From: Shinella sp. PSBB067 | Lineage (GTDB): Bacteria > Pseudomonadota > Alphaproteobacteria > Rhizobiales > Rhizobiaceae | Direction of reading: 5' to 3' | Length of the DNA stretch: 64,000 nt | Assembly: GCF_016839145.1 (NCBI RefSeq) | Contig: NZ_CP069303.1 | Span: forward strand, 806,001-870,000 | Shown here: positions 14,618 through 32,487 of the stretch, one piece after another | Numbering within the stretch: the stretch's first letter is position 1 | How the letters are laid out: each line of letters starts with the position of its first letter | Position numbers and translations under genes: made by a program | Notes under the pieces: model-generated | The model's database searches: none | The model's input: only the letters and a program-made list of their open reading frames with translations | What the model was told of the DNA's origin: nothing

Positions 14618-14693
14618 TCCCGGCTCGGCTAGCCTCAGCTCAGGCCCAGTAAATGGGCGCGCATAGTTAACGTGCGCATCGCCCGAGCCGGGA
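14618..14693. promoter_or_regulatory. Candidate operator: 11-base inverted repeats ahead of the WYL regulator
   Basis: TCCCGGCTCGG (14618-14628) and its exact reverse complement CCGAGCCGGGA (14683-14693) flank 54 bases. The right arm overlaps the ribosome binding site of the WYL gene (GGGAG). Between the arms are GGCTAGCC (14627-14634) and a direct repeat of GCGCAT. BrxR and CapW WYL regulators repress defence operons by binding inverted repeats in front of their own gene, so this is a good operator candidate, although those sites have a much shorter spacer. Confidence 0.5.
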
Positions 14694-14700
14694 GAGCGTG

Positions 14701-15573
14701 ATGGAGAGCGACAGGTCGGAACTTCGCTGGGGAGTCGAGCAGCGCCTCGAGTTCATTGAGTTCCGCCTGTTCTGGGAGGGACATGTGAACCGCAGCGACC
14801 TGATGGACCAGTTCGGGGTCTCGGTGAACCAGGCGTCCACCGATCTGAACCGCTACATTGGTTTCGCGCCGGACAACATGATCTACGATAAGAGCGCGCG
14901 GACCTATGTCCGCGGTCCCGGCTTCAAGCCACAGTTCCTCGAGCCTGACGCAAGCCGCTATCTCGCCCAGCTGCGATCGGTGGCGGACGGGATCCTCGAC
15001 CGCGAGGACTCCTGGATCGCCGATCTCCCGCCCTACGCCTCGGCCCCGACCCCGGTGCGCGGCGTCAATCCGGTGACGCTCCGCTCGGTCGTCAGTGCCA
15101 TCCGCCGGTCCGAGGCAGTCGAGGTCAAGTACCAGTCACTGTCCAGCCCCGAGCCGCGCTGGCGTTGGATCGCTCCTCACGCCATCGCGTTCGACGGGTT
15201 CCGCTGGCACACGCGGGCGTTCTGCCTGACCGACGACTGCTTCAAGGACTTCCTGCTCTCACGGATCCTCGACATCCGCGGATCGCGGGAGAGCGCCACA
15301 TCGGCCGGCGAAGATAGCGATTGGCATTCCGAGGTCACGCTGGAGGTCGGCCCCCACCCTGACCTCTCGGAGACGCAGGCCAAGGTCATCGCGCTCGACT
15401 ACGGCATGCGAGGCGGCAAGGCGAAGATCAAGGTGAGGCGCGCGCTCCTCTACTACGCGCTCAGGCGGCTCGGGCTCGACACAGATCCGGCGGCGCGGAA
15501 GCCGCAGGACCAGCAGATCGTGCTGCTCAACAGGGATCAGATTAGCCAGTCGGCACAAGGAATTTTACAATGA
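14701..15573 (+). CDS. WYL-domain transcriptional regulator (BrxR/CapW-like)
   Basis: A 290-residue protein with an N-terminal winged HTH (QRLEFIEFRLFWEGHVNRSD and LMDQFGVSVNQASTDLNRY, about 12-55), a central WYL domain (RSEAVEVKYQSL through RWIAPHAIAFDGFRWHTRAFC, about 135-180) and a C-terminal WCX-like dimerisation part. This is the architecture of BrxR/CapW, which hold phage-defence operons off until a signal binds the WYL domain. The start at ATG 14701 has GGGAG 6 bases ahead; GTG at 14698 is possible. The stop overlaps the methyltransferase ATG. It is the first gene of the DISARM-like operon and the likely repressor of it. Confidence 0.85.
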   Translation: MESDRSELRWGVEQRLEFIEFRLFWEGHVNRSDLMDQFGVSVNQASTDLNRYIGFAPDNMIYDKSARTYVRGPGFKPQFLEPDASRYLAQLRSVADGILDREDSWIADLPPYASAPTPVRGVNPVTLRSVVSAIRRSEAVEVKYQSLSSPEPRWRWIAPHAIAFDGFRWHTRAFCLTDDCFKDFLLSRILDIRGSRESATSAGEDSDWHSEVTLEVGPHPDLSETQAKVIALDYGMRGGKAKIKVRRALLYYALRRLGLDTDPAARKPQDQQIVLLNRDQISQSAQGILQ

Positions 15574-18527
15574 GTGATACTGTCCAGACCCTCCGCGATC
15601 TCATCCTCGACCTGGTCCCGGCCGACGGTTCGACCATTGGCAGCCAGGCGCTGATTACCGAGCTTCGCAACCACCTGCCGGATCTGGACGACGCCGAGTA
15701 TCATGCCGCGAAGGATGCGCTTGTCGCCGAAGGCCTGCTGGCGAAGGGGCGCGGCCGGGGTGGTTCTGTCTCCCGTGCGGATGGGCAGGTGCCGGCGGTC
15801 GCGGCCTCCGCGCCGGCAAAACCCAAGGCTGCTGCCATGCCGGCCGGGAACGGGTCAGGCGCCTATGCGCATGCGGACGAGGCCGTTCTGCGGCCGGATG
15901 TCGGGGTTGAGGCGCAGTTCTCGCATCGCAAGCCGCCGAAGACCTACCGCTACGATTCCAGCCTCGCGCCGGAGCTGGCGTGGGACGAGAGCGGCGAACG
16001 GCCCTTTGCAGAATGGCTGCTCAACCTGGTGGCCGAGGCCGCGGAGAAGGGAGAGGCCACGGTCTTTGCCGAGCCGCAGGTCTGGCAGGGCACGGAGGAG
16101 CGGTTCACCTCGCTCTCGCAATGCGCGGCGCGGCTGCGCAGCCTGACGAAGCCCTTCCTGAACTGGGCGGGCAAGGCCGAGCGGCAGCAGATCAGCGTGC
16201 CGACTCTGCCCCTGTTCGTGCATGAGCGGCATTCGACGCAGGCGATCCTCGAGACGCTGAAATCGCACAAGGCGCGCGGGCAGACGCTGGACCTGTTCGG
16301 CGATCTGGACCTCGACATCGCCGACCGGCTGGACGCCTACGAGCACAAGGGCCCCTGGACCAACCGCCTGATCCTTGGCGACTCGCTGCAGGTGATGAAC
16401 TCGCTCCTCGAGTACGAGGGGATGGGCGGCCAGGTGCAGATGATCTATTTCGACCCGCCTTATGGCGTGAAGTTCGGCTCGAACTTCCAACCATTCGTTC
16501 GAAAGAACCGGGTAGATCACGGCAAAGATGACGAGATGATCCGTGAGCCCGAGATGGTGAAAGCCTACCGGGACACTTGGGAGCTCGGCCTGCATTCCTA
16601 TCTCGCCTACCTGCGTGACCGAGTGATGCTGGCGAGGGAATTGTTGTCCGAGTCCGGTTCGCTGTTCGTGCAGATTTCCGACGACAACATTCATCACGTC
16701 CGCGAGGTTCTGGACGAAGTGTTCCCCGGCGGCTTCGTTTCGCAGATCAGTTTTCAGACGACCTCTGGGTTCGAGTCGTCGACCCTCCCGACGGTCGGCG
16801 ACTTCCTGCTCTGGTACTCAAAGGACAAGAGTAAGGTCAAATATAACAAGGTCTTCCAGCCGCAGCCGGTGGAGCTTGGCAAAGGAAATGCGCGCTGGGT
16901 GTTGTTCCCCGACGGGACATATCGAGGCGTCACTGCCGCCGAAGCTCGGGGGGAGGATGAACTACCGAAGGACGTGCGACTCTACAATCCCGGCGATCTT
17001 CAATCGCAAGGTGCCGCAACTGAACCGCAGCCCTTCGAACACCTCGGAAGGACTTATCTTCCCGGCGGGAACTCTCATTGGAAGGCAAACTATCCGGACG
17101 GAATGAAGCGCCTCGCGGCAGCTGGTCGTATTCACGTGGCGAAGAACAGCATCCGTTACCGTCGTTTCTCGGATGACTTCCCGTTCCAGCAAATCGGCAA
17201 CATCTGGACGGACACAATCACCGGAAACTTCACCGACGACAAGATCTACGTCGTGCAAACCGGCTTCAAGGTGATTGAGCGCTGCATGCAGATGACCACG
17301 GATCCGGGAGAATTGGTGCTCGACATTACCTGCGGCTCAGGGACCAGCGCGGTCGTGGCAGAACAATGGGGCCGCCGCTGGATCACCGTGGACACATCTC
17401 GGGTGCCGGTGGCTTTGGCCCGGCAGCGACTGCTGACGACTGCGTTTCCATGGTACAAACTGAAGGAGCCGTCGAAAGGTCCTGCTGGCGGCTTCGTCTA
17501 CGAGCGCAAGCGAAACAAGAAGGGCGAGGAAGTCGGCGGCCTCGTGCCCCGCATCACACTCAAGTCGATCGCGAACGATGAAGACCCCAAGATGGAGGTC
17601 CTGGTCGACCGCCCCGAGGTGAACGACAAGATCACGCGCGTCTGCGGTCCCTTCACCGTCGAAGCCACGATCCAGGCGGCGATGAGCATGGAGGAGGATG
17701 CCGAAGGCACCTCGGCGCAGCCGCAATCCTCAAGCCCGCGCGCCTATCTGGACCGCATGATCGAGGTGCTACGGCAGAGCAAGTCGCTCAGCCTGCCAGG
17801 GAACGAGACGCTGCAACTCGACAACGTCCGCCCGCTGGCCGACCGCGAATACCTGCATGCGGAGGCCGTGGCGAAGAATGGCAGCCAGAAGACCATCGCC
17901 ATTGCTTTTGGTCCCGAGGACGGCGCCATCGGCTCCGACTACGTATTCAACGCCGCCATGGAGGCAATGCAGCAGGGCTTTGGCCAGCTGTTCCTGTTCG
18001 GCTTCGCCATCCAGGCCAAGGCACGCGAGATCCTCGAGAAGATGAAGATCCCGACCGCCTACATCTCGATGACGCCGGATGTGGTGATGTCGGACCTGCT
18101 CAAGACGACGAAGGGCAGCGAGATCTTCTCGATCACCGGCCTGCCGGATGTGCGACTGGACAAGGCGGGCAAGCGCGACGACGGCACGCCGCTCTATCGC
18201 GTGGTGCTGCGCGGGCTCGACATCTTCCTGCCGCACCTGATGGACACCGACCACATCGACGCCGAGAACCTGCCCTGCTGGATGCTCGACACCAATCACA
18301 ACGGCATGGCGTTCTACGCGAGCCAGGTGTTCTTCCCCAAGACCAGCGCCTGGGACAACCTGCAGAAATCGCTGAAGGGCCAGTTCGAGGACAGCGTCTG
18401 GTCGCATCTGGCGGGGACGGTCAGCGAGCCCTTCGCGCTGGGTGACAAGAAGCGCATCGCGGTGAAGGTGATCGACGAACGCGGCAACGAGCTGATGGCG
18501 ACCCGCAGCGAAGAGGATGCCGTCTGA
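15570..18527 (+). CDS. Site-specific DNA methyltransferase, type III Mod-like (N6-adenine)
   Basis: A 985-residue methyltransferase. The N-terminus (1-70) is a winged-helix module ending GLLAKGRGRGGS, then an Ala/Pro-rich linker. The catalytic DPPYG is at 295-299, and the AdoMet-binding motif DITCGSGTSAV follows at 585-595, the order of beta-class amino-methyltransferases such as type III Mod. DPPY predicts N6-adenine methylation. The C-terminal 350 residues are probably target recognition and Res docking. It is coupled to WYL (ATGA) and to Res (TGATG at 18525-18529). It likely supplies the self-mark for the adjacent Res. At nearly 1000 residues it is longer than a typical Mod. Confidence 0.9.
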   Translation: MSDTVQTLRDLILDLVPADGSTIGSQALITELRNHLPDLDDAEYHAAKDALVAEGLLAKGRGRGGSVSRADGQVPAVAASAPAKPKAAAMPAGNGSGAYAHADEAVLRPDVGVEAQFSHRKPPKTYRYDSSLAPELAWDESGERPFAEWLLNLVAEAAEKGEATVFAEPQVWQGTEERFTSLSQCAARLRSLTKPFLNWAGKAERQQISVPTLPLFVHERHSTQAILETLKSHKARGQTLDLFGDLDLDIADRLDAYEHKGPWTNRLILGDSLQVMNSLLEYEGMGGQVQMIYFDPPYGVKFGSNFQPFVRKNRVDHGKDDEMIREPEMVKAYRDTWELGLHSYLAYLRDRVMLARELLSESGSLFVQISDDNIHHVREVLDEVFPGGFVSQISFQTTSGFESSTLPTVGDFLLWYSKDKSKVKYNKVFQPQPVELGKGNARWVLFPDGTYRGVTAAEARGEDELPKDVRLYNPGDLQSQGAATEPQPFEHLGRTYLPGGNSHWKANYPDGMKRLAAAGRIHVAKNSIRYRRFSDDFPFQQIGNIWTDTITGNFTDDKIYVVQTGFKVIERCMQMTTDPGELVLDITCGSGTSAVVAEQWGRRWITVDTSRVPVALARQRLLTTAFPWYKLKEPSKGPAGGFVYERKRNKKGEEVGGLVPRITLKSIANDEDPKMEVLVDRPEVNDKITRVCGPFTVEATIQAAMSMEEDAEGTSAQPQSSSPRAYLDRMIEVLRQSKSLSLPGNETLQLDNVRPLADREYLHAEAVAKNGSQKTIAIAFGPEDGAIGSDYVFNAAMEAMQQGFGQLFLFGFAIQAKAREILEKMKIPTAYISMTPDVVMSDLLKTTKGSEIFSITGLPDVRLDKAGKRDDGTPLYRVVLRGLDIFLPHLMDTDHIDAENLPCWMLDTNHNGMAFYASQVFFPKTSAWDNLQKSLKGQFEDSVWSHLAGTVSEPFALGDKKRIAVKVIDERGNELMATRSEEDAV

Positions 18528-21500
18528 TGCCTGAGGCCGCACAGCAGGACGCCCCACTCACCGTTGCCGAGGTCGAGTCCCCGATCATCAACTCGCCCTT
18601 CGCGGAACCGAAGTGTCACTGGAAGATCGAGAAGGCCAAGCCGCCCTACAAGGCTGATGGCCGGCGCCGCGCTAGCTACTTCTACCGCGTGCCGGAACAT
18701 GCCGGGCGTGGGCGCGCGAATCGCGACCAGGCCGAGCTGTTCGAGAGCCAGGCGGGCGAGGAAGTCGAGCTCGAGATCGTCAACGCCATTCGCGGCCGGG
18801 TAAAGGACTGGCGGGCGGGCGTGCACAGCGGTGGCGTGGCATATGACGGCGCCTCCCCGGTGACGCGCGAGCTTCTGGACCTCTGGCGCAGCGATCAGCG
18901 CATGCAGCGCCTGTTCTTCGCCCAGATCGAAGCCGCCGAGACGATCATCTTCCTCGTGGAGGCGAAGGACGTCTATCGCAAAGGGCTTCCCGAGATTCCC
19001 AAGGACGAGCCGGGACTGGAGGCCAAGGCGACCGGCGTGCGCGCCTTCCTGCGCTACGCCTGCAAGATGGCGACTGGCAGCGGCAAGACGACCGTGATGG
19101 GCATGCTTGCCGCGTGGTCGATTCTGAACCGCGTGGCGTCTCCGCGGGATGACCGGTTCTCGGACACCATCCTGATCGTCTGCCCCAACGTGACGATCCG
19201 CGAGCGGCTGCAAGAGCTGGATCCGGCGCTCGGCGACCTGAGCCTCTACCGAACACGGCAGCTGGTCCCGCCACACCGGATGGAAGAGCTGCGGCGTGGC
19301 GAGGTCATGATCGCGAACTGGCACCGGCTCGCGAAGAAGGAGACCAATTCGGTCAACGGCGACAGCGCCAAGGTGGTGAAGACCGGTGAGCCAGTCGAGG
19401 TGGTGAAGAACGCGGGGAAGGCGAACGAGAGCGTCGAGACAAAGTACTTCGAGTCCGACCAGGCCTGGTTCAAGCGCATCCGCCGGGAGCTTGGCAGCGG
19501 CAAGGGTCGGAGCCCGCACTGGCTGATCTTCAACGACGAGGCGCACCACGCCTACCGCAGGGGCGACGCCGCGAGCGAGGAAAGCCTCGACGAGGACAAG
19601 GACCTCGCGAAGAAGAACGCTCGTGAGGCCACGATCTGGATCGAGGGCTTGGACAGGATCAACAAGCTCGCGGGCGGCAGCCGGCGGCGTGGGATCAACC
19701 TCTGCGTCGACCTGTCGGCGACACCCTTCTACATCCAGGGCTCGGGAAACGAGGTCGGCAAGCCGTTCCCGTGGGTCGTGTCGGATTTCGGCCTGCTGGA
19801 TGCGATCGAATCCGGGCTGGTGAAGATTCCACAGCTTCCGGCGCGTGACGTGTCGGGCGCCGAGGAGGCCGCCTACTTCAACATCTGGCGCTGGGTTCAG
19901 GCGAAGGCCAAGGAGGATGGCCTCGGCACGAACATCACGCCGGAGATCGTGATGAACTATGCGTCCGCGCCCATCAACCTGCTGGCACAGGAGTGGCACG
20001 AGCGCTTCCTCGAATGGGAACAGCATTCCAAGCAGCAGCAGAAGCATCCGGTGCCGCCGGTGTTCATCGTCGTGTGCCGAGACACCGCCGTTGCCAAGGA
20101 AGTCCACGACTGGCTGGCGAATGGGAACGACAGCTACGGGGTTTCTCCTGCTTGGTTCCGGAATGCGCCCGGGCAGGAGGTCACTGTCAGGATCGACTCG
20201 AAGGTCATGGAGGACATCGAGGAAGGCGGGTCAAAGGACGAGACCAAGCGGCTTCGATTCATTCTCGACACGGTCGGCAAACCGGAATGGCCGGGCGGCA
20301 AGATCCCCGAGGACTGGTCCGAGCTGGTGCGCAAGCACAATGACAAGGTGGCCAGCGATGACAACGACGGTTCGCTAAAATGGATCGATGAGCGTATCCC
20401 GCCGGGGCGAGACGTCCGTTGCATCGTTTCGGTCGCGATGCTGGCGGAGGGCTGGGACGCCAACACGGTCACGCACATCGTCGGGCTCCGTCCGTTTGGC
20501 TCACAGCTCCTGTGCGAGCAGGTCGTCGGGCGGGCATTGCGGCGCAAGAGCTATGCGCTCGACGAGGAGACACAGATGTTCGCCGAGGAGACGGCCAAGG
20601 TCTTCGGTGTCCCCTTCGAGCTCATTCCGTTCAAGGTGAAGCCGGTTGGTCCGCAACCGCCGCAGCCAGATCCGAACCACATATACTCCGTCCCGGAGAA
20701 GGCCGAGTTCGAGATCACCTTTCCCATCGTGACCGGCTACCACCAGTCGGGCCAGTTCGATGTGCATATCGACTGGAGCAAGGTCGCCAAGGTGACGATC
20801 GATCCGATGAAGATCCCACAGGTGGTCGAGCTGACCCCTCTGACAACACCTGACGGGACATTGGCGGCATTCGGGCCGGGTGAACGCCCGATCCTCTCGT
20901 TGAAGGACTGGCGCGCCCGGTTTCGCGATCAGCAAGTTGCATTCAGGCTGGCACGTGAGATCTGCGACCGCTGGCTCTCAGACAACGGCGCCGAAGCAGT
21001 TCCAGTCCAGCAGCTTTTCCCGAAGGTCGCTTTCGCAGCGAAGCGCTTCCTTGCAGAAAAGCTTGATCGAAAAGGCGATAGTCGGCCGTGTGACGTGCTG
21101 CTGGTCGGCGAATACATGCAGGCTGCCATCGGCTCACTGCTCGAAGCCATCAAGAAGGGATCGGCGACAGGCGGCGGCGAGGTTGCCATCATTCCCCAAG
21201 GCGCAGCCGGTAGGGGAAGCACGCTCTACGTCGATTTCCACACGACAAAGCCGATTTACCCGGTCACGAGGTGTCATCTGAACGCGATGGTGGCTGACAC
21301 GAAGAAGTGGGAGCAAAGTGCCGCCTTCCTTCTCGACAGCCATCCAGGCGTGAAGAGGTGGGTCAAGAATGACCGGCTGGGGTTCACGATCCCCTATCGG
21401 CATCGTGGCCTGCTGTCGCGCTACATCCCCGACTTCATCGTTGTCACGGATCGAGACGAGAAGGTCATCGTGGAGATCAAGGGCCAGGTAACTGACAATG

Positions 21501-21667
21501 CAGACGCCAAGGCGAAGGCGGCTGAGCGATGGGTGGAAGCCGTCAATCGGCTTGGTGAGCACGGTGTATGGAAATACTTGTTCGTCGAAGATCCTGGGCG
21601 GATTGCCATACAGCTGAATGCGTTCACGCAAGCCAAATGGGATGAGGGTCCATTTCAGCTCACCTGA
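18527..21667 (+). CDS. BPTD_3080-type restriction endonuclease, Res-like SF2 helicase-nuclease
   Basis: A 1046-residue helicase-nuclease. The SF2 motor has Walker A MATGSGKT (181-188), the DEAH box (337-340), LSATPF (near 397-402) and a C-terminal helicase lobe with LRPFGSQLLCEQVVGRALRR. A PD-(D/E)XK nuclease follows: PDF with Asp969 and VEIKG with Glu983 and Lys985. This matches the BPTD_3080 family of type III-like Res subunits. With the upstream Mod it should cut DNA lacking the methyl mark after ATP-driven translocation. A gap of 138 bases separates it from the UvrD gene, the only sizeable gap in the operon. Confidence 0.9.
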   Translation: MPEAAQQDAPLTVAEVESPIINSPFAEPKCHWKIEKAKPPYKADGRRRASYFYRVPEHAGRGRANRDQAELFESQAGEEVELEIVNAIRGRVKDWRAGVHSGGVAYDGASPVTRELLDLWRSDQRMQRLFFAQIEAAETIIFLVEAKDVYRKGLPEIPKDEPGLEAKATGVRAFLRYACKMATGSGKTTVMGMLAAWSILNRVASPRDDRFSDTILIVCPNVTIRERLQELDPALGDLSLYRTRQLVPPHRMEELRRGEVMIANWHRLAKKETNSVNGDSAKVVKTGEPVEVVKNAGKANESVETKYFESDQAWFKRIRRELGSGKGRSPHWLIFNDEAHHAYRRGDAASEESLDEDKDLAKKNAREATIWIEGLDRINKLAGGSRRRGINLCVDLSATPFYIQGSGNEVGKPFPWVVSDFGLLDAIESGLVKIPQLPARDVSGAEEAAYFNIWRWVQAKAKEDGLGTNITPEIVMNYASAPINLLAQEWHERFLEWEQHSKQQQKHPVPPVFIVVCRDTAVAKEVHDWLANGNDSYGVSPAWFRNAPGQEVTVRIDSKVMEDIEEGGSKDETKRLRFILDTVGKPEWPGGKIPEDWSELVRKHNDKVASDDNDGSLKWIDERIPPGRDVRCIVSVAMLAEGWDANTVTHIVGLRPFGSQLLCEQVVGRALRRKSYALDEETQMFAEETAKVFGVPFELIPFKVKPVGPQPPQPDPNHIYSVPEKAEFEITFPIVTGYHQSGQFDVHIDWSKVAKVTIDPMKIPQVVELTPLTTPDGTLAAFGPGERPILSLKDWRARFRDQQVAFRLAREICDRWLSDNGAEAVPVQQLFPKVAFAAKRFLAEKLDRKGDSRPCDVLLVGEYMQAAIGSLLEAIKKGSATGGGEVAIIPQGAAGRGSTLYVDFHTTKPIYPVTRCHLNAMVADTKKWEQSAAFLLDSHPGVKRWVKNDRLGFTIPYRHRGLLSRYIPDFIVVTDRDEKVIVEIKGQVTDNADAKAKAAERWVEAVNRLGEHGVWKYLFVEDPGRIAIQLNAFTQAKWDEGPFQLT

Positions 21668-23685: not shown

Positions 23686-26600
23686 ATGCAGGACAGATCA
23701 GAGGATAGAGACATCGTTGCCCTCAGGCTTGCAGAGGATCTTGTCGGCCCCCGGGCCGAAAACGAGGTGCTTTCAGCGCGGCCGTCCGATGTCTACCTGA
23801 CCGGCATTCTCTGGCCTCAGCGCACCGCCATGTCGGGCGAGGATGACGATCGCCTTGGCACAGCGGGAGCGGGCAGCGCGGAGGAGAGCGACGGCGAGAG
23901 CGACGCTGTACGAACCGGGTCGGTCCAGAAGCCGTCCGTTGCTGGCATATCCTTCAGCACAAAGGCGGAAGGTGTCGCGAAGGTGCGCATCGTCTGCAGC
24001 TTTGGGACCTATCGGACCGAGAAAGGCGACGATGGCGACGTATGGGTTCGGCAATCTCACAGTGTCGAAATTGCGGCCCTCGAACTGACGCCCGGTCCGA
24101 CGCGCGAGATCCAACTTGCCGAGCACGGAGATGGGCTTCCTGACGTTTCTCTTAGCGTCAGATGCATCAAGGCTGCGGATACCGTCCTCGTTACTCTCGC
24201 TCTGGTCAATTCGGTGGTTCCGGAGCAGGACCGAAACGAGATCGAGGCGGCCTCTCTCTTTCAGACCTCGCTTCGCATCGAGCCCTGCGAGGGTACTCTG
24301 CTGGTCCCGAAGCCTCCTCGGCGCGCAGCTTCGGTAAAGCCGACCACTGACGGCGAAACGGGCGCGGTCACCGACGAGGAGAGCGGAGCGCTTCTCTACA
24401 GGAACGTCGCGGAGTTTGCTGTCGGCCACGTCTGTTCGGCCGAGTGGGAAGAGGCAGAGATTTCGGCAGGCTCACAACCCCATGCTCGATGGGTTGCGAC
24501 GACATGGCTGCCATCGGCCATTGTCGAGGGGGTGGATCCCAATGGACATCCATATTTCGCAGAGCTGGGGAATGAACCCGGGACATTCGACCCTCTTCTG
24601 GCCGAGGCACTGGCCTCCGCTGACGCGACAACCCTTGGGAACGGACTTGTCACCTTCTGCGACGCCTATGCTCGGTGGATCGAGACACAGAGGAAGCGGC
24701 TTGAAGATGCCTGGGACGTCGCCCCTGCGTTGAAGCATGTTGCCGAGGCGCATCTCATCCAGTGCGATAAGGCTCTGGATCGCATGCGAGCATCGGTTGA
24801 TGAACTCGGCGCCAACCCGAGGCTGCGGAGAGCGTTCCAGCTGGCAAACTTCGCCATGCACCTGCAGCACTCGTGGGACAAGTCGAAGAGCCGTCACGGC
24901 TCCCTCCGCTGGCGCCCGTTCCAGCTAGGCTTTCTGCTTCTGAGCGCTCCGTCGTCGGTGGTCCGGGATCACGAGCACCGAGGAGTCATGGACCTGCTCT
25001 GGTTCCCGACGGGTGGCGGCAAGACCGAGGCTTATCTGGCGCTGATCGCGTGCATCGCCGTCTACCGCCGCCTCTCAGACAATCCGGACGACCACAGCGG
25101 CGTTTGCGCCCTAATGCGCTACACGCTTCGTCTTCTTACAACCCAGCAGTTTGCGCGTTCCGCTGCAATGATCGTGGCCCTTGAGGCCATCCGCACTGGT
25201 CGGGTAGCCGCTCCCGAGGGACTGCCGTTTCAGGGCGGAGAGCCTTTCTCGATAGGCCTGTGGGTTGGTGGTGATGCCACCCCAAACAAGCGGACCGCCG
25301 CTTACGCTTCCATCGTCCAGCGTTCGCAGGAGGTGGCTTCGCCAAAGCAACTCGCGCGTTGCCCTGCCTGTGAGTCGAAGCTGAACTGGTCGATAGCAAG
25401 CCCGACATCACCTGTGGAGGTTTCGTGCGAGAACCCCGAATGCGCGATGTATGGGCTGCTCCCGGTCCATACCGTGGACGAGGATGTCTACGACAATCGT
25501 CCGACGCTGATCATTGGAACGGCAGACAAGTTCGCTCAGGTCGTCCGTGAAAAGCGAACCAACAGTCTGTTTGCCGTCTCGGAAGGGTCCCCTCCTGACC
25601 TGATCATCCAGGACGAGTTGCATCTCATTTCGGGTCCGCTCGGGACAATTGCTGGCGTCTATGAATCTGCTTTCGACCTGATGTTCGCCGCGCGCGGACA
25701 TCGCGCCAAGGTCATCGGCTCGACAGCTACGATCCGCAGGGCGCCGGAACAGGTTCTGGCGCTTTTCGATCGCGAGGCCTTCCAGTTTCCGCCGCCGGCC
25801 ATCGACCATGACGATTCAGGGTTTGCGGTGCAGGACCGCCGCCCCAGCGCCAAAGGACGGCGATATCTCGGGGTCACTACAGCGGGCCGATCCGCAAAGT
25901 TCACCCTTCAGGCAGTGGCTGGCTCCCTGCTGCAGACTGCCTTCGGAGCGTTCAGCGACGATGTCCGTCGGGACGCCTACTGGACGCTTGTCGGCTACTT
26001 CAACTCCCTTCGGGAGCTCGGCGGCGCCCTTGTACTGATGCAGGATGACGTCACCGACAGTATCGCGCTCTACGCGAACGCTCGGTCGGAAGAGAAGCGC
26101 CCTCTCAGCAACGTCGAAGAACTCACCTCTCGCCGGACACAGGAGGAGATCCGGGAGATGCTCGACCTTCTCGATATCAAGGTTGGGGCTCCTGGCGCAG
26201 TCGATGCGGTGCTTGCGACTAACATGGTGAGTGTCGGCGTTGACATCTCCCGACTGGGACTAATGCTCGTCAACGGGCAACCAAAGACGTTCGCAGAGTA
26301 CATCCAGTCAACGAGCCGCGTCGGGCGCGGTGACGTGAGCGGCCTGGTCGTTTCGGTCCTCAACAACGCCAAGGCAAGGGACCGCTCGCATTTCGAGACG
26401 TTCTGCAGCTGGCACCGTACATTGTACAGGGACGTTGAGGCGACAAGCGTCACACCCTTCGCATCGCGTGCTCGCGACAGGGCGCTGCATGCCGCCCTTG
26501 TGGCGGCAGTACGCCATCTGGTTCCGGACATGCTCGACTCCCCTCGAATGGAAGACGAGGCGGAAGACGAGGCAATGGATCTCATCGACCTCATTGTCGA

Positions 26601-26880
26601 ACGGGCAAAACGCATCGATCCGGAAGAGACGGCCGTGCGGGATGAACTCGAACGGCGCCTCGATACATGGCGAGCAAGATCGCCGACGGTCTACTGGAGC
26701 GACTACAAGGGAGGGAAATCCCTTCTGCAGAGCGCCGAGCGCGCTGCCGCTCGTCGCGCTGCCGGCCGCGATGCTGGCGCCGCCTGGCCTACCCTAAACT
26801 CCATGCGGACCGTCGAAGCCGGAACGCCATTCAGGATGGCCCCAGTACTGAGGGCAAAGGACGATACGCATGAAGAATGA
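23686..26880 (+). CDS. drmA: DrmA-like DISARM helicase
   Basis: A 1064-residue helicase matching DrmA in length and layout: an N-terminal domain starting RDIVALRLAEDLVGPRAE, Walker A PTGGGKT (441-447), a Cys4-like insert (CPACESK and CENPEC, from about 558), the variant DEXH box DELH (643-646), GSTATIRR, and motifs V/VI (ATNMVSVGVDISRLG and YIQSTSRVGRG). DrmA and DrmB form the core complex of DISARM, which in characterised cases holds DNA and an autoinhibitory loop released by a 5' overhang. It overlaps drmB by 11 bases. Here it is placed with a type III-like Mod/Res rather than with DrmD or DrmE. Confidence 0.85.
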   Translation: MQDRSEDRDIVALRLAEDLVGPRAENEVLSARPSDVYLTGILWPQRTAMSGEDDDRLGTAGAGSAEESDGESDAVRTGSVQKPSVAGISFSTKAEGVAKVRIVCSFGTYRTEKGDDGDVWVRQSHSVEIAALELTPGPTREIQLAEHGDGLPDVSLSVRCIKAADTVLVTLALVNSVVPEQDRNEIEAASLFQTSLRIEPCEGTLLVPKPPRRAASVKPTTDGETGAVTDEESGALLYRNVAEFAVGHVCSAEWEEAEISAGSQPHARWVATTWLPSAIVEGVDPNGHPYFAELGNEPGTFDPLLAEALASADATTLGNGLVTFCDAYARWIETQRKRLEDAWDVAPALKHVAEAHLIQCDKALDRMRASVDELGANPRLRRAFQLANFAMHLQHSWDKSKSRHGSLRWRPFQLGFLLLSAPSSVVRDHEHRGVMDLLWFPTGGGKTEAYLALIACIAVYRRLSDNPDDHSGVCALMRYTLRLLTTQQFARSAAMIVALEAIRTGRVAAPEGLPFQGGEPFSIGLWVGGDATPNKRTAAYASIVQRSQEVASPKQLARCPACESKLNWSIASPTSPVEVSCENPECAMYGLLPVHTVDEDVYDNRPTLIIGTADKFAQVVREKRTNSLFAVSEGSPPDLIIQDELHLISGPLGTIAGVYESAFDLMFAARGHRAKVIGSTATIRRAPEQVLALFDREAFQFPPPAIDHDDSGFAVQDRRPSAKGRRYLGVTTAGRSAKFTLQAVAGSLLQTAFGAFSDDVRRDAYWTLVGYFNSLRELGGALVLMQDDVTDSIALYANARSEEKRPLSNVEELTSRRTQEEIREMLDLLDIKVGAPGAVDAVLATNMVSVGVDISRLGLMLVNGQPKTFAEYIQSTSRVGRGDVSGLVVSVLNNAKARDRSHFETFCSWHRTLYRDVEATSVTPFASRARDRALHAALVAAVRHLVPDMLDSPRMEDEAEDEAMDLIDLIVERAKRIDPEETAVRDELERRLDTWRARSPTVYWSDYKGGKSLLQSAERAAARRAAGRDAGAAWPTLNSMRTVEAGTPFRMAPVLRAKDDTHEE

Positions 26881-28729
26881 GTTGCAGGAGCTGCGGCGAA
26901 GCGCAGTCGTTTCTACCTTTGGTCCCGGTTCCGTCGTGGACTTCAGAGCAGGTGGAGGAGCCGTCTCTGGCATCGCTGCAGGGCTCGAGGAATGGGATCG
27001 GTCCTTCCCTCCGGCGGGACTGGCGCACCCGCAGGTCATCCGCGAGACGCGCCTCCAGAAAAAGCTCGGCGTCAAGGGTTTCAGAACGCCCCCTGTGACG
27101 CTCGAGCGGGGAAAGGATGACGATCCGGATACCCGGCGTCTTGTTGCCGTGCGCTTCCCGAAATGGCTGCAATGCCCCAGCTGCGATGTCATCAAGCCGG
27201 AGCGCCGATGGAAGAACGACCCGGGAAAGGCCTACCGTTACTGCCCGACGTGCACCGAAAAGGCACATGGCGACAGCAAGGTCTTTGTCATTCCCGTCCG
27301 CTTCGTCATGGCATGCAAGCATGGGCATGTTGACGAGTTTCCGTGGGACTGGTGGGTCGGACACAAGCCCGAATGCTCAGTGGCGAAACGGGAAAACACG
27401 GATCGCCATCCGGGGCTTGTCCTGCGGTCCGAGAGGCCGGGCCTCGCCGGTCTGATCCTCAGCTGCCCGAAGTGTGGTGCGCGCCGATCAATGGATGGCG
27501 TCTTTTCCAAGAAGACGTGGGAACGCGGCCCCAAATGCCGCGGCCATCGACCATGGCTGGCCGATGGCGATGAGAGCTGCGGCAAGGAGCAGTACGCCGT
27601 TCAACGAGGGGCGTCGAACCTGTATTTCGCCGTGACGGAGTCCGCGCTGAGCATTCCACCTTGGTCGGACCGCCTTCAGGAGGTGCTTGGTGACTGGTGG
27701 AGTTCCCTGACGAACTTGGACGACCTGTCGAAGCTCGAGGAATACATCGGCTTCCTTGCGAAGGGCGACCTTGAGAGCGTTCTCAAGGAACTCGAAATGT
27801 CGCCTGCCGAACTGGCGGAAGCGATCCGTGCCCGCCTCACGTCTTACGGACAGCTGCGGACCGATGATCTGAGACCAGCAGAGTATCGACAGTTTGTCAC
27901 GGAACCCGGGCGCAGTCGAACCCCCGACATCGACTTCGAGACACGCCGGGAGGCGGTCGCCGCGGAAATCGCCCCGTGGATTTCCCGGGTGGTAAGGGCC
28001 GTACGATTGAGGGAGGTGCGAGCCATCAAGGGCTTTACCCGCATCAACCCACCCGGCGATCCAGACTCGCCAGAGGTGGCTCGTCTCTCCAAGGAGCCGC
28101 TTGAATGGTTGCCAGCCATCGAGGTCCGCGGCGAGGGCATCTTTCTCGCCCTGAACGAGGAGCGCCTATCGAGCTGGGAAAACCGGCCAGACGTCGTGGC
28201 GCGCGTTTCCGAGTGCGAGGCGCGGCATCAGGCCGATTGGAAGGAACGGTACGGAGAAGACGCGAAGCCACCTCAGGCGATCACCCCGCGATACATGCTC
28301 TGCCACACCCTAGCGCACGCTCTCATGCGTCAGCTTACCCTCGAATGCGGCTACTCCTCGGCATCTCTCCAGGAGAGGATCTATGCCGGTACTGGCGAGG
28401 AGCAGATGGCGGGACTTCTCATCTATACCGCGACCCCCGATTCGGATGGGACGCTTGGAGGGCTCGAACGGCAGGGGAAGGCGGGGCGCATTGCAGGCAT
28501 CCTCCAACGTGCAATCGATGCGATCGAATGGTGCTCTTCGGACCCGCTATGCATCACCGACATGATGGGAGCCGAGAAAAGCTACTCCCATTCGGTGTGC
28601 CACGCCTGCTGTCTTGTCCCGGAGACATCGTGTGAAGCGTTCAACAGCTTCCTCGATCGTGCACTACTCACCGGCGACGGGACGGGCTCGGGTCTCGGCT
28701 ACTTCGAAGAGATGCTTCGGAGAAGCTGA
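26870..28729 (+). CDS. drmB: DrmB-like DUF1998 protein
   Basis: A 619-residue protein with the DrmB opening (LQELRRSAVVSTFGPGSVVD, 5-24), zinc-ribbon pairs CPSC (about 102) and CPTC (about 125), another at CPKCGARR (about 199), and the C-terminal DUF1998 with HTLAHALMRQLTLECGYS and a Cys cluster (WCSSDPLC, CHACCLVPETSCE). DrmB partners DrmA on DNA in DISARM. It overlaps drmA by 11 bases and the NERD gene by TGATG, so all three should be made together. Zinc binding is inferred from the Cys pairs. Confidence 0.86.
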   Translation: MKNELQELRRSAVVSTFGPGSVVDFRAGGGAVSGIAAGLEEWDRSFPPAGLAHPQVIRETRLQKKLGVKGFRTPPVTLERGKDDDPDTRRLVAVRFPKWLQCPSCDVIKPERRWKNDPGKAYRYCPTCTEKAHGDSKVFVIPVRFVMACKHGHVDEFPWDWWVGHKPECSVAKRENTDRHPGLVLRSERPGLAGLILSCPKCGARRSMDGVFSKKTWERGPKCRGHRPWLADGDESCGKEQYAVQRGASNLYFAVTESALSIPPWSDRLQEVLGDWWSSLTNLDDLSKLEEYIGFLAKGDLESVLKELEMSPAELAEAIRARLTSYGQLRTDDLRPAEYRQFVTEPGRSRTPDIDFETRREAVAAEIAPWISRVVRAVRLREVRAIKGFTRINPPGDPDSPEVARLSKEPLEWLPAIEVRGEGIFLALNEERLSSWENRPDVVARVSECEARHQADWKERYGEDAKPPQAITPRYMLCHTLAHALMRQLTLECGYSSASLQERIYAGTGEEQMAGLLIYTATPDSDGTLGGLERQGKAGRIAGILQRAIDAIEWCSSDPLCITDMMGAEKSYSHSVCHACCLVPETSCEAFNSFLDRALLTGDGTGSGLGYFEEMLRRS

Positions 28730-30414
28730 TGGCAGTGCTCTGGCCCAAAAAACTTCCTCGTTCGGTCCTCGACGATCCGAGGCGAAAGGCAGAGGTTCGC
28801 GTTTACGATCGCCTCGCCGAAGTGCTCGACGACAGCTTCCATGTCTTCTACTCGAGTCCCTGGCTGGGCACCGACAGGCTCGGAAACGAGAAGGATGGCG
28901 AATGCGATTTCCTGATCGCTCATCCCGAGCACGGCATCCTCGCAATCGAGGTCAAGGGCGGCAGAGAAATCTCGTTCGACCCGAGGGACGGCCAGTGGCG
29001 CAGCACGGATCACGGCGGGTTCGTCCACAAGATCAAGGATCCTGTTGCACAAGCACGCAGCGCGAAACATGAGATCCTGAAACGGCTGAATGACTCACCG
29101 AGGTGGCCAAACCGCTTCGTTCATGCTGCTCACGGGGTGATTTTCCCGAGCGCCGGCTCGCCTCCCGGCAATCTCGGCGCGGATCGGCCGACCCGGATAT
29201 TCTGCTGTTCACGGCAGTTTCACGATGAGTTTGGCGCATGGATTGCCGAGCGGCTGAAGGCTGGCCAGCGCCCCGACAACTGCGAGCCGCTGGGTCGCGA
29301 CGGCATTGCTGCGCTGGAACGCCTTCTCGCGCATCCGTTTACGCTGAGCTTCCGGATTGGCGCCGCGCTGGCTGAAGCCGATGCGGAGTTCCGCGTCCTT
29401 GAGCCGTCCCAGTACCAGATCCTCGACATGATCGCCGATATCCCGCGGGCACTTGTTCGGGGTGGTGCAGGTACCGGCAAGACGGTTGTAGCGATCGAGG
29501 AAGCGCTCAGATCCGCGGCGGCCGGGCGAAAGACCCTCCTGACCTGTCACAGTCGTCCGCTGGCAAGCAACCTCGAACGAAAGCTGAAGAATGTCGAGAA
29601 CCTCACCGTTGCCGGATTTCACGCCATGTGCGGGCGGATCTCACGGCAGGCAGGCATCTCGCCGCCTTCCGGGATCAGCGAAAGGGAACTTTACGAGAGC
29701 GCGCTGCCGAATGCTCTCTATCGCGCAATGGAGGCTCAGCCTGCACTCCGATGGGACACCGTCATCGTCGACGAAGGTCAGGATTTCCGAGACGACTGGT
29801 GGATCGCGCTGGATGCGTGCCTTTTGCCCGATGGACGTATCCGCGTATTCATGGACAGCAATCAACGGGTCTACGAGAGCGCTGGAGATGGCGCTCGCGA
29901 TCTGAGCGTGGTTCCGGTTCGCCTTTCCCGAAACCTTAGGAATACCAAGAATATCCACAAGGCTGCATCGGTCCACTATTCGGGACCAGAGATCGTCGCG
30001 GACGGGCCCGATGGCCTGGAAGTGTCGTGGGTCAGCGCAGAGAGTCCGGACGCGAAGATCGAGGCGGCGTACCGGGAGCTTCGCAGGCTCGTTCTCAACG
30101 AGGAAGTAGCCCCCGGTGACATAGCTGTGCTCGTCAACGGCCCTGCCGCCCGGGCGAGCTTCCTCGAGAGAAGCAGCGGAACCAGTATTCCACTCACCGA
30201 TGCCGAGATCATGGCACTCGAGGACGTGGTCGTGGACACCGTGCGCCGATTCAAGGGGCTCGAACGACCCGCAATAGTGCTGATCGTCAGCGGCGACGAG
30301 ATGGACCGACGAGAACTTGCCTATGTCGCTTTTTCGAGGGCGCGGGCATATCTGTGCGTCGTATCATCGCCAACGGAGGCGAAGTGGTTGTCGGAGGGAT
30401 CGTCGGATGCTTGA
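28729..30414 (+). CDS. NERD nuclease domain fused to UvrD/DUF2075-like helicase
   Basis: A 561-residue fusion. The N-terminal NERD domain has ECD (58-60) and AIEVKGG with Glu74 and Lys76, the D...ExK nuclease set. The helicase part has Walker A GGAGTGKT (245-252), Walker B VDEGQD (347-352), DTVRRFKGLERPAIVLI (motif V) and YVAFSRARAYLCVV (motif VI). It stands directly after drmB, where classical DISARM has the phospholipase-D nuclease DrmC. It may replace DrmC as the nuclease of the system, coupling cleavage to DNA translocation. It converges on dcm copy B with 11 bases between the stops. Confidence 0.88.
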   Translation: MAVLWPKKLPRSVLDDPRRKAEVRVYDRLAEVLDDSFHVFYSSPWLGTDRLGNEKDGECDFLIAHPEHGILAIEVKGGREISFDPRDGQWRSTDHGGFVHKIKDPVAQARSAKHEILKRLNDSPRWPNRFVHAAHGVIFPSAGSPPGNLGADRPTRIFCCSRQFHDEFGAWIAERLKAGQRPDNCEPLGRDGIAALERLLAHPFTLSFRIGAALAEADAEFRVLEPSQYQILDMIADIPRALVRGGAGTGKTVVAIEEALRSAAAGRKTLLTCHSRPLASNLERKLKNVENLTVAGFHAMCGRISRQAGISPPSGISERELYESALPNALYRAMEAQPALRWDTVIVDEGQDFRDDWWIALDACLLPDGRIRVFMDSNQRVYESAGDGARDLSVVPVRLSRNLRNTKNIHKAASVHYSGPEIVADGPDGLEVSWVSAESPDAKIEAAYRELRRLVLNEEVAPGDIAVLVNGPAARASFLERSSGTSIPLTDAEIMALEDVVVDTVRRFKGLERPAIVLIVSGDEMDRRELAYVAFSRARAYLCVVSSPTEAKWLSEGSSDA

Positions 30415-30425
30415 GCATCCTGCCC

Positions 30426-31958
30426 TCAAGCCAGCGCGCTCAGGATCAGCCCTGCAATCTGGCGTGCCAGAAACGGCGGCACGGCGTTCCCGACTTGGAC
30501 GTACTGCTGGGTCCGATTGCCCATGAACAGGTAGTCGTCGGGGAATGTCTGAAGTCGCGCAGCTTCGCGCACCGTCAGGCTGCGGCACTGCAGAGGATCG
30601 GGATGGATGAAGTAATGACCATCCTTCGAGATGTGGCTTGTGACAGTGGTTGAGGCCTCATCGGCCAGCTGGACGCGGAACCGGTCATTGAACACCCCGC
30701 TGTGCCAGTTGCGATGATCCGGGCTCAGCGCGAGCGGAAAATCGGCGGCCTTCGGGCTGTAACCACAGACGGCCCCGAACACGGCTGCGAACAGGTAGCG
30801 GCCGAGATCAGACGCCATGTGTCCCCGCGTTTCATGCTGGGCGAAAGCGCGAAGGTCCGGACGCTCCAGCCAGCGCAGCAGTTCATCATTCGAATTCCCG
30901 TAGTTCTCGGGAAGGCGTGTACCCTTCCGACTACAAGGGGCTTCCGTCGCCGTGCGCCTTGCAACTGACGAGAATGCCTCACGGAGCGGCTGATTGTCCT
31001 TCCCGGCATGCATACGCGCCAGCAGTTTCGCAGCATCTCTCACCTCCTGTCGCCAGTCTTCCGCGCTGTCCGCCCCGCGACTGATCCCGCTTCGCAAGGG
31101 GGGCATGGATTCAATGACGTCACTGACAAATCGTGCTGGTCCGGAGACCGCAATGGCGGTGCCGGCCGCCTTTCCTGCCAGATCAGCCCTGATCCCGACG
31201 ATGATTACCCGATGGCGTCGCTGCGGAACGCCGAACTCTTCGGCGCGCACGACGAAGTCCGAAGGACGCATCGCCTCCTGCAGGCTGGCCTTACCGTCTT
31301 CGACCCGAATGGCCCGCAGCTCGTATTGATGGCCATGGCCGCTGCCGAGGGAGGCAAGGTCCTCCATCAGCATCTCGAACACGAGTCGGCTCTCGACAGT
31401 CGAGGACAACATGCCCTTGACGTTCTCCATCACGAAGGCTGCCGGCCGAAGCCTGTCGAGCACTCTGATGTACTCGCGGAACAGGTAGTGCCGTTCATCC
31501 AACTCAGGCACATAGCCGACCTTGCCCCTCGACCGCGCCCGACCCACGAGGGAGTAGGCCTGACACGGCGGGCCGCCGATCAGGATCGTGTCATCGTAGC
31601 CTGCCCTCAGCTTCTCGATGGCGGCATCGATCGCTGTTGCTGCGGCCTCGGTGCCGAGTTCGAGGCCACGCGCCTCTTCGATCGCTGCTCGCCAGGCAGC
31701 CGCATCGACTTCCGACCAGTCCGGTTCGGACACTTCCCCAGCGTGGAAATCGATGAACTGTCGGGGCAAGGTCCCGTGACGTGCGCGGTATCCGCGCAGG
31801 AACGCGCGCAGTATCAGCGTCCGGTGCGCCGATGCCTCCTTCTCGACAGAGATGCCGATCCGGAACGGCGCGTGGCCGTCCTCGGCAAGAGATGCAAACC
31901 CCTCGCCAAGTCCGCCGGGGCCGGCGAACAGATCAACGATGCCGAAAGTCGAAGGCAA
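30426..31958 (-). CDS. DNA cytosine-5 methyltransferase (DrmMII/Dcm-like), copy B
   Basis: A 510-residue C5 methyltransferase with DLFAGPGGLGEGF (9-21), GGPPCQAYS (Cys132), ENV (178-180), QRRHR (246-250) and VQVGNAVPP. It starts at TTG with AGGAG 7 bases ahead, as in copy A. It is about 80% identical to copy A; differences cluster in the segment after motif VIII (about 255-345), which in this family sits in or near the target-recognition region, so specificity could differ. In class 2 DISARM the 5mC methyltransferase DrmMII marks CCWGG. Here it probably adds a second self-mark next to the adenine methyltransferase of the same locus. Confidence 0.93.
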   Translation of the reverse strand: MPSTFGIVDLFAGPGGLGEGFASLAEDGHAPFRIGISVEKEASAHRTLILRAFLRGYRARHGTLPRQFIDFHAGEVSEPDWSEVDAAAWRAAIEEARGLELGTEAAATAIDAAIEKLRAGYDDTILIGGPPCQAYSLVGRARSRGKVGYVPELDERHYLFREYIRVLDRLRPAAFVMENVKGMLSSTVESRLVFEMLMEDLASLGSGHGHQYELRAIRVEDGKASLQEAMRPSDFVVRAEEFGVPQRRHRVIIVGIRADLAGKAAGTAIAVSGPARFVSDVIESMPPLRSGISRGADSAEDWRQEVRDAAKLLARMHAGKDNQPLREAFSSVARRTATEAPCSRKGTRLPENYGNSNDELLRWLERPDLRAFAQHETRGHMASDLGRYLFAAVFGAVCGYSPKAADFPLALSPDHRNWHSGVFNDRFRVQLADEASTTVTSHISKDGHYFIHPDPLQCRSLTVREAARLQTFPDDYLFMGNRTQQYVQVGNAVPPFLARQIAGLILSALA

Positions 31959-31976: not shown

Positions 31977-32012
31977 TTCATTCAGCCGGTGTATACCAGG
32001 TTCAGGGACGAA
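31977..32012. promoter_or_regulatory. Conserved divergent promoter core between dcm and vsr, copy B
   Basis: Identical over 36 bases to 11598-11633, with the same overlapping -10 candidates at GTATAC. CCAGG is at 31996-32000 and at 32015-32019, the spacing of copy A. The surrounding coding DNA is clearly less conserved than this core. Confidence 0.5.
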
Positions 32013-32025
32013 AACCAGGACGCAT

Positions 32026-32487
32026 GTGACAGATATCGTGGATCAGCAGACCCGGTCCCGCATGATGGCAGGGATCAGGGGAAAGGACACGAAGCCCGAG
32101 CTGGCGCTGAGGCGGGCGTTGCACGCGCGCGGTTTCCGATTCCGGCTCCATTCGAAGGCGGTCCACGGTCGACCGGACCTCGTTCTGCCGAAGTATCGCG
32201 CCGTCGTCTTCGTGCATGGCTGTTTCTGGCATCGTCACGAGGGGTGCCGCTACACGACCACACCATCGACCCGCCAGGAGTTCTGGCAGGGAAAGTTCGC
32301 CGCGAACGTTGCTCGAGACGCAGCAGTACGCGGGAGGCTTCTGGAAGAGGGCTGGCGCGTTGCAACAGTGTGGGAGTGCGCGCTTCGGAAACCGGATCAG
32401 ATAGTCGCGTCTGTAAACAGCCTGTCAGAATGGCTGCAATCCGAGGACGATCGGATCGAAATCGGCGCCAAAGAGGCGCAGTCGTAA
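32026..32487 (+). CDS. vsr: Very short patch repair endonuclease, copy B
   Basis: A 153-residue Vsr with TRSRMMAGIRGKDTKPEL, GRPDLVLPK (catalytic Asp) and the zinc-site HGCFWHRHEGCRY, WECALRK. It starts at GTG (32026) with AGGA ahead, against ATG in copy A. It should repair T:G mismatches made by deamination at sites of Dcm copy B. It ends only 27 bases before the stop of the last phage tail gene, which comes from the opposite strand, so this is the right edge of the defence island. Confidence 0.93.
   Translation: MTDIVDQQTRSRMMAGIRGKDTKPELALRRALHARGFRFRLHSKAVHGRPDLVLPKYRAVVFVHGCFWHRHEGCRYTTTPSTRQEFWQGKFAANVARDAAVRGRLLEEGWRVATVWECALRKPDQIVASVNSLSEWLQSEDDRIEIGAKEAQS

What the first reader, a model, noticed from the sequence alone, without database searches (positions are those of the whole stretch)
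14618..32487. Hybrid defence locus: type III-like Mod/Res joined to DISARM core DrmA-DrmB
One coupled plus-strand operon encodes WYL regulator, N6-adenine-type Mod, BPTD_3080 Res, UvrD helicase, DrmA, DrmB and NERD-helicase, then a convergent 5mC methyltransferase and Vsr. Known DISARM classes have DrmA, DrmB and DrmC with DrmD/DrmMI or DrmE/DrmMII. Here DrmC, DrmD and DrmE are absent and a full Mod/Res pair with its own nuclease is present. Four ATP-driven motors, two nucleases and two methyl marks in one locus suggest a distinct subtype. The gene content is seen; the joint function is inference.
Basis: partly seen in the sequence, partly recalled or inferred. Interest (0 to 1): 0.85.

Follow-up and report, generated by a model that had tools for sequence, protein, structure and literature searches.

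The report
Two defence cassettes behind one regulator
A bacterial anti-virus locus that looked like one new hybrid system is better read as two separately travelling defence cassettes that became stacked behind a shared regulatory gene, one of them an apparently unnamed branch of the DISARM family.

Summary
The genes are as described: WYL, Mod, Res, UvrD-like helicase, DrmA, DrmB, NERD-helicase, then convergent 5mC methyltransferase and Vsr, motifs intact. The reading as one Mod/Res-DrmAB subtype is not supported. Of 22 loci in the window's DrmA/DrmB clade, only the window has Mod/Res. UvrD-DrmA-DrmB-NERD-helicase is the conserved unit (21 of 22; in one, UvrD is cut by a contig end; clade support 1.0), apart from DISARM class 1 and without DrmC or DrmMI by the one model each tried. 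Conversely, 0 of 23 other Mod/Res loci from the same class and 0 of 12 close relatives have DrmAB nearby.

Both units exist alone behind the same WYL gene: WYL-Mod-Res on one viral-collection contig, WYL-UvrD-DrmA in five genomes. DNA similarity to each stops at the Res/UvrD junction, and the window's WYL is a mosaic with a breakpoint near 15238 (0 of 2000 permutations). In viral-collection contigs the same WYL heads several other restriction-type cassettes.

Best reading: a DISARM-like four-gene effector with swappable modification modules, here stacked under a type III-like R-M pair by recombination in or beside the regulator. Function is inferred; DISARM class 2 could not be placed on the tree.

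The parts
14644..14677 (+). Short inverted repeats upstream of WYL (GCCCA-N5-TGGGC, then GCGCA-N9-TGCGC); candidate operator, read by eye
   Evidence: First repeat matched in 5 of 15 other loci tested: the 5 that hold WYL with its upstream (L096, L002, L003, L004, L010, the last with one arm mismatch), not L009 (upstream not held) and not 9 loci without an intact WYL. Against: a palindrome scan with arms of 6 or more did not list it, and a looser pattern is in only 6 of 25 viral WYL stretches, not in L128-L131.
14698..15573 (+). WYL-domain regulator, 291 aa; mosaic gene with breakpoint near 15238
   Evidence: PF13280; mosaic test
15570..18527 (+). Mod: type III-like methyltransferase, 985 aa, DPPY at residue 295
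   Evidence: PADLOC MTase_III 471 bits, PF01555, motifs
18527..21667 (+). Res: BPTD_3080-family helicase-nuclease, 1046 aa; GSGKT 184, DEAH 337, PD..EIK 968-985
   Evidence: NF046055 1169 bits; invariants in 12 sequences
21668..21805 (.). Junction spacer; similarity to Mod/Res loci ends at 21669, similarity to UvrD loci starts at 21805 at the earliest
   Evidence: blastn; 21670-21805 matches none of the other loci fetched
21806..23680 (+). UvrD/GajB-like SF1 helicase, 624 aa
   Evidence: PF00580; all 5 plasmid relatives at E<=1e-30 lie beside DrmA
23686..26880 (+). DrmA, 1064 aa, TGGGKTEA 442, DELH 643
   Evidence: NF038325; PADLOC DrmA 651 bits; PDB 7s9v_A E 3.6e-128
26870..28729 (+). DrmB (DUF1998/MZB), 619 aa
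   Evidence: NF038324; PDB 7s9v_B E 6e-90
28729..30414 (+). NERD nuclease-helicase, 561 aa, E74-V-K76 and GGAGTGKT 245
   Evidence: PF08378, PADLOC RTasNERD-Hel; motifs
30426..31958 (-). 5mC methyltransferase, 510 aa (PCQ 131, ENV 178), best PADLOC model DrmMII
   Evidence: PF00145, PDLC02649 270 bits
32026..32487 (+). Vsr very-short-patch endonuclease, 153 aa, divergent from the 5mC methyltransferase
   Evidence: PF03852, TIGR00632

Best explanation
The locus is two separable defence cassettes stacked behind one WYL regulator, plus an exchangeable 5mC methyltransferase-Vsr unit. Cassette 1 is a type III-like Mod-Res restriction-modification pair. Cassette 2 is a four-gene DISARM-like effector, UvrD-DrmA-DrmB-NERD-helicase, conserved as a unit without Mod/Res. 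Recombination within or beside the shared WYL header most likely put Mod-Res between WYL and UvrD. Proposed working: WYL represses the operon from repeats upstream until infection (inferred from BrxR-type regulators). Mod marks host sites and Res cuts unmarked DNA (inferred from families). DrmAB loads on ends or forks with a 5' single strand and translocates (binding to 5' overhangs shown for Serratia DrmAB, inferred here). The NERD-helicase, in the place of DrmC, degrades the strand with help from UvrD (inferred). The convergent 5mC methyltransferase may give a host mark as DrmMII does, and Vsr repairs the T:G mismatches that 5mC causes (inferred). Shown here: gene content, motifs, unit conservation, junction, WYL mosaic. 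Not shown: any activity, or that the two cassettes cooperate.
For: Core order UvrD-DrmA-DrmB-NERD in 21 of 22 clade loci, the 22nd (L001) with UvrD cut by the contig end; clade support 1.0 beside a class-1 clade of 17. WYL directly before UvrD without Mod/Res in L002, L003, L004, L009, L010 and on two viral-collection contigs. WYL-Mod-Res without UvrD or DrmAB in L096, colinear with window 14594-15898, its Res 98% identical. Similarity boundaries at 21669 and 21805. Mosaic WYL: DrmAB-type at 64 of 73 informative sites before 15238 and 6 of 43 after, 0 of 2000 permutations. Of 12 other loci with a Res 81-98% identical, 0 have DrmAB, 2 have ZacA-ZacB-ZacC. L065 carries a 5mC methyltransferase (86%) and Vsr (91%) in the same place although its DrmA is only 47% identical.
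Against: The join is tight: WYL and Mod overlap, and no promoter-like site by E. coli consensus was found before UvrD, so co-transcription and joint action are possible. The donor of the WYL 3' half is uncertain: L009, which has no Mod/Res, is 90% identical there against 92% for L096, and other WYL genes (L134 27.7, L132 23.4, L131 15.3 against 60.9 for the window) also look partly mosaic. Only one WYL-Mod-Res locus without DrmAB was found. Loss of Mod/Res from the relatives instead of gain here is less simple but not excluded. No test of this core's activity was in anything I read.
Confidence: 0.75

Rival explanations
1. A true hybrid system: Res cuts unmodified phage DNA and the ends made are the entry points for UvrD, DrmAB and the NERD-helicase, all induced together by WYL. 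Mod and the 5mC methyltransferase are its two host marks.
For: One operon-like array with overlapping genes, motifs intact. DrmAB of Serratia binds DNA with a 5' overhang (PMC9142583, abstract and passages). Related Mod/Res sits directly behind UvrD-ZacA-ZacB-ZacC in two plasmids, so partnership with multi-helicase effectors recurs.
Against: Mod/Res in 1 of 22 clade loci; 0 of 23 other same-class Mod/Res loci with DrmAB; no excess of genomes with both.
Confidence: 0.15
2. A diverged DISARM class 2 locus: the 5mC methyltransferase is DrmMII, and UvrD and NERD-helicase stand in for DrmE and DrmC. (This rival concerns only the DrmAB cassette and does not exclude stacking.)
For: The best PADLOC model for the 5mC methyltransferase is DrmMII, 270 bits; a 5mC methyltransferase lies directly downstream and convergent in 10 of 22 clade loci.
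Against: No DrmC anywhere in the genome by one model; no DrmE among the rows shown for the nine proteins (where at most 25 rows per protein are shown: 25 of 45 for UvrD); a closely related methyltransferase-Vsr pair also serves a different system in the window. No certified class-2 locus was in the tree, so this is weakly tested.
Confidence: 0.15
3. Two neighbouring systems that merely abut in a defence island, with no regulatory link and no recombination in WYL; Mod-Res was inserted by chance behind a regulator that belongs to the DISARM-like operon.
For: The window is a defence island with a serine recombinase and another system at its left; island modules are shuffled among relatives.
Against: WYL-Mod-Res exists as a unit with the same WYL C-terminus and overlap, and the mosaic breakpoint lies inside WYL.
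Confidence: 0.1

Closest known systems
DISARM class 1 (DrmD, DrmMI, DrmA, DrmB, DrmC)
   Same: Split DrmA and DrmB, homologous to Serratia DrmAB 7s9v, in DrmA from residue 132 of that protein on; an acidic stretch at DrmA 36-80 where the Serratia trigger loop aligns (read).
   Different: No DrmC, DrmMI or linked DrmD found; about 130 N-terminal residues of Serratia DrmA missing; UvrD and NERD-helicase present; separate clade.
DISARM class 2 (DrmE, DrmMII, DrmA, DrmB, DrmC)
   Same: DrmA, DrmB and a DrmMII-like 5mC methyltransferase nearby.
   Different: No DrmC; no DrmE found (a weak test); methyltransferase on the opposite strand and not called in 8 of 22 clade loci.
Type III restriction-modification (Mod-Res), BPTD_3080 branch
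   Same: Mod with DPPY and type III model, Res with SF2 helicase and C-terminal PD-(D/E)xK motif; the pair is together in 22 of 23 same-class loci, the 23rd being a broken copy on a short contig.
   Different: Only 31-39% identical to those same-class Res proteins; the closest kin sit behind ZacABC or without a recognised partner system.
BrxR/CapW-type WYL regulators
   Same: WYL gene first in a defence operon; BrxR homologues co-localise with BREX, type III and type IV systems and bind inverted repeats (PMC9122601, passages).
   Different: Here nearly the same WYL gene heads many different cassettes and is itself mosaic. Repeat arms are shorter than that paper's 20-bp search criterion.
Azaca (ZacA-ZacB-ZacC; that the Zac names belong to Azaca is recalled)
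   Same: Close relatives of this Mod/Res are in line behind UvrD-ZacA-ZacB-ZacC in Shinella and Agrobacterium plasmids.
   Different: No Zac gene among the window's nine; DrmAB takes that place.
ARMADA and TALON (YprA-family systems)
   Same: YprA-family helicase; TALON also has a NERD nuclease (PMC12458937, parts 1-3 of 8 read).
   Different: Those have the DUF1998 module in the helicase; here it is a separate gene, and no BrxHII, PglX, TBP or TPR-CSD gene is among the nine.

Membership tests
DISARM class 1 (PADLOC definition, PMC9252829 passages) | DrmA and DrmB as separate adjacent genes | tested here: met
DISARM class 1 | DrmC PLD nuclease | tested here: not met
   PDLC02595: 0 in the whole genome, while annotated drmC in two control plasmids is found; one of several models
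DISARM class 1 | DrmD SNF2-like helicase | tested here: not met
   Not among the nine genes; genome hits at most 110 bits against 1140 for annotated DrmD, and the model also rings in 14 of 14 controls
DISARM class 1 | DrmMI adenine methylase | tested here: not met
   PDLC02638: 0 in the genome, 5 of 14 controls ring; one of several models
DISARM class 1 | DrmA/DrmB inside the class-1 clade | tested here: not met
   Separate clades, each support 1.0, 52 loci
DISARM class 2 | DrmE | tested here: inconclusive
   PDLC02637: 0 of 4 records, no control rang
DISARM class 2 | DrmMII 5mC methylase | tested here: inconclusive
   DrmMII is the best model (270 bits) but a type II methylase model follows at 224 bits
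DISARM class 2 | DrmC PLD nuclease | tested here: not met
Type III R-M | Mod with methylase motifs next to Res with SF2 motor and PD-(D/E)xK nuclease motif | tested here: met
Type III R-M | Cleavage of unmethylated DNA at paired asymmetric sites | not testable with these tools
   needs enzymes or a methylome
BrxR-type WYL regulator | WYL domain, first gene of a defence operon | tested here: met
   PF13280 and position; a DNA-binding domain was not matched by Pfam and is inferred from the family
BrxR-type WYL regulator | Binding to upstream inverted repeats | tested here: inconclusive
   Short conserved repeats; not in all WYL loci; binding untested
ARMADA | YprA helicase with fused OB-CON-DUF1998, with BrxHII-like and PglX-like genes | tested here: not met
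   DUF1998/MZB is in DrmB; no such genes among the nine scanned
TALON | ARMADA-like YprA with TPR-CSD and TBP genes and NERD nuclease | tested here: not met
   NERD present, TPR-CSD and TBP absent among the nine scanned

The most novel reading that the evidence does not exclude
The WYL gene is a docking header: a recombination-prone regulator whose conserved sequence lets whole anti-phage cassettes be swapped or stacked under one promoter. The window catches a stacking event, with a breakpoint inside WYL, that put a type III-like R-M pair on top of an unnamed third DISARM class (UvrD-DrmA-DrmB-NERD-helicase).
Probability: 0.4. Interest if true: 0.7.

Novelty: new variant of a known kind. Interest (0 to 1): 0.52.

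Why it matters
If true, DISARM has a branch that dispenses with DrmC, DrmD and DrmMI and uses two SF1 helicases and a NERD nuclease with interchangeable modification modules. That tests which parts of DISARM are really the core. The DrmA of this branch falls below NCBI's DrmA cut-off and the locus does not meet the PADLOC class definitions as quoted, so such loci may be missed or misnamed (I did not run those annotation tools). A regulator gene that serves as the recombination site for exchanging defence cassettes would give a concrete mechanism for how defence islands are rebuilt, and one that can be tested on existing genomes.

Full report
What is there. The plus-strand array is tightly coupled except for one 138-bp gap between Res (ends 21667) and UvrD (starts 21806). 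Motifs are complete: Mod DPPY 295 and a CGSGT loop; Res GSGKT 184, DEAH 337 and PD..EIK 968-985, its P, D, E and K invariant in 12 aligned sequences; UvrD AGPGTGKT and DEAQ 145; DrmA TGGGKTEA 442 and DELH 643; NERD E74-V-K76 and its own Walker motif; 5mC methyltransferase PCQ 131 and ENV 178.

The conserved unit. A scan of GTDB genomes with DrmA gave 15 loci in Paracoccus, Tabrizicola, Pseudomonas, Spiribacter and other genomes, with DrmA 80-94% identical. None has the window's Mod/Res. As far as the stretches reach, UvrD, DrmA, DrmB and NERD-helicase follow in that order, with a second UvrD in three. In a tree of 52 DrmA+DrmB loci (FastTree, 1588 columns), 22 loci including the window form a clade of support 1.0. 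All 22 have DrmA, DrmB and NERD-helicase; 21 have UvrD in front as called, and in L001 UvrD is cut by the contig end. Seventeen loci with DrmD, DrmMI or DrmC (class 1) form another clade of support 1.0. Twelve further loci, from actinomycetes, Deinococcus, Photobacterium and others, form a third of support 1.0; 7 of these have a NERD-helicase and 3 a UvrD-like gene as called, partly in another order. One locus, L038, stands alone. All 5 plasmid relatives of the UvrD at E<=1e-30 lie beside DrmA. Of 10 plasmid relatives of the NERD-helicase, 6 do; one (Burkholderia, L124) lies beside separated DUF1998 and DrmA-like genes; 3 lie elsewhere, so the NERD-helicase is not exclusive to this core.

Not class 1 or class 2 by definition. 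PADLOC asks for DrmA, B, C, D, MI or DrmA, B, C, E, MII (PMC9252829, passages). One DrmC and one DrmMI model find nothing in the whole genome, with working controls. DrmD finds only weak SNF2 matches elsewhere. For DrmE there was no control. I could not put certified class-2 loci on the tree, so 'third class' is not proven.

Swappable modification modules. In the 22-locus clade a 5mC methyltransferase was called somewhere in the stretch in 14 and a Vsr in 10. The methyltransferase is directly downstream and convergent in 10. In L065 this pair is 86% and 91% identical to the window's while DrmA is 47% identical, so the pair moves separately. Upstream, 7 of 22 have a 988-aa orphan protein, in 6 with a called SNF2 helicase; 2 have a protein with TmtA-like and ResIII regions, 1569 aa in L010 and cut in L005; 5 have WYL; 1, the window, has Mod/Res.

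The Mod/Res pair. In 385 genomes of the class, 22 pass the BPTD_3080 cut-off. I read 23 loci: the 22 loci of the 21 other genomes over the cut-off, and one broken copy. 22 of 23 have Mod beside Res; 0 of 23 have DrmA, DrmB or UvrD of this kind by tblastn; stretches were 7-20 kb and several were cut by contig ends. Same-genome overlap of DrmA and Res: 1 of 297 (10 with DrmA, 23 with Res) in the order and 1 of 385 (9 with DrmA, 22 with Res over the cut-off) in the class, each time the window's own genome (63, 32). Below the cut-off, G656 has two DrmA loci and a fragment of the Res family on another contig, and G386 and G437 have DrmA and matches near 30 bits. Against my reading, one Planktothrix plasmid has class-1 DISARM genes and a distant Mod/Res on the same strand about 6 kb apart, with opposite-strand genes between.

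The join. L096 has WYL-Mod-Res with no UvrD or DrmAB behind it; it is colinear with the window from 14594 through the WYL/Mod overlap, with the same WYL C-terminus, and its Res is 98% identical. L002, L003, L004, L009 and L010 have WYL directly before UvrD, and L007 keeps a WYL remnant there. Window similarity to the first kind ends at 21669; to the second it ends at 15524-15537 and resumes at 21805 at the earliest. Within WYL, 126 sites tell four DrmAB-type genes from L096. The window follows the DrmAB type at 64 of 73 scored sites before 15238 and at 6 of 43 after (10 others match neither); none of 2000 permutations reaches this. Cautions: the permutation test ignores linkage between sites; other WYL genes also look partly mosaic (L134 27.7, L132 23.4, L131 15.3, L009 10.2, L136 8.1, L003 4.9, against 60.9 for the window, no permutations run for them); and L009, without Mod/Res, resembles the window's 3' half nearly as well as L096 (90% and 92%).

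The header. A WYL scan of viral contigs gave 23 loci at 63-89% identity. Behind WYL stand UvrD-DrmA-DrmB (2 contigs that give identical figures), Mod-Res (1, which is L096 again), Res-x-Mod of the other branch (4, one partial), SNF2 plus methylase (2, one of them HmaA), an HKD-SNF2 and type III methylase set (2, one scanned), a GajB-like plus type III-type methylase set (1), a type IIG enzyme (1) and an HmaB-like set (1); 9 were not assigned. None has Mod/Res and DrmAB together in the stretch held. WYL regulators beside varied defence systems are known (PMC9122601, passages); its main text has no mention of DISARM.

How it may work. Serratia DrmAB is autoinhibited by a trigger loop and binds DNA with a 5' overhang; DrmC appears non-essential there (PMC9142583, abstract and passages). 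The window's DrmA aligns from residue 132 of that protein on and has an acidic stretch where the loop aligns, but lacks the N-terminal part. I infer the same loading step, with NERD-helicase and UvrD as degradation partners. Res-made ends could feed it, but nothing here shows that.

In print. The four-gene core was not found described in my searches of the held library (mostly judged from listings). In the closest paper, PMC12458937 (parts 1-3 of 8 read, and passages), NERD is named in the text only with TALON and UvrD only with ARMADA's ArmD. PMC10952713 and PMC8565338 were seen as passages. Most subscription journals and the original DISARM paper were not readable, so this is weak evidence of novelty.

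Noticed in passing
[not shown]
   Followed up: partly
window 564-2425: Serine recombinase and small gene, 79-84% identical in DNA to the stretch beside Mod/Res in viral contigs L091 and L095, and 81% in L004: a likely vehicle of such islands.
   Followed up: partly
window 32515-53445: RcGTA/prophage-like structural cluster (GTA_TIM tail protein, tape measure, capsid-protease, terminase) directly beside the island; L001 and L003 have a homologue of the same tail gene next to their DrmAB loci, suggesting a defence hotspot at the tail end.
   Followed up: partly
window 12270-12449: Short stretch that recurs at cassette edges in L004 (both sides), L095 and L091; nature unknown.
   Followed up: no
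L012 2457-5423, L036, L037, L063-L065, L113; similar gene in L127: Orphan protein of about 988 aa without Pfam or PADLOC match in the copies scanned, mostly paired with a DrmD/DpdE-like SNF2 helicase, divergent from UvrD-DrmAB-NERD in 7 of 22 clade loci; also beside a NERD-helicase without DrmAB in L127; 124 homologues, many matching only in part; fold unassigned.
   Followed up: partly
L003, L004, L012: A second, about 50% identical UvrD paralogue between UvrD and DrmA.
   Followed up: no
L084, L085: Mod-Res in line behind UvrD-ZacA-ZacB-ZacC, a possible six-gene unit on Agrobacterium and Shinella plasmids.
   Followed up: no
L112 6048-17632: Class-1 DISARM DrmA-DrmB beside convergent ZacC-ZacB-ZacA.
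   Followed up: no
window 12562-12879: ParE-like toxin gene on the minus strand between the two defence sets.
   Followed up: no
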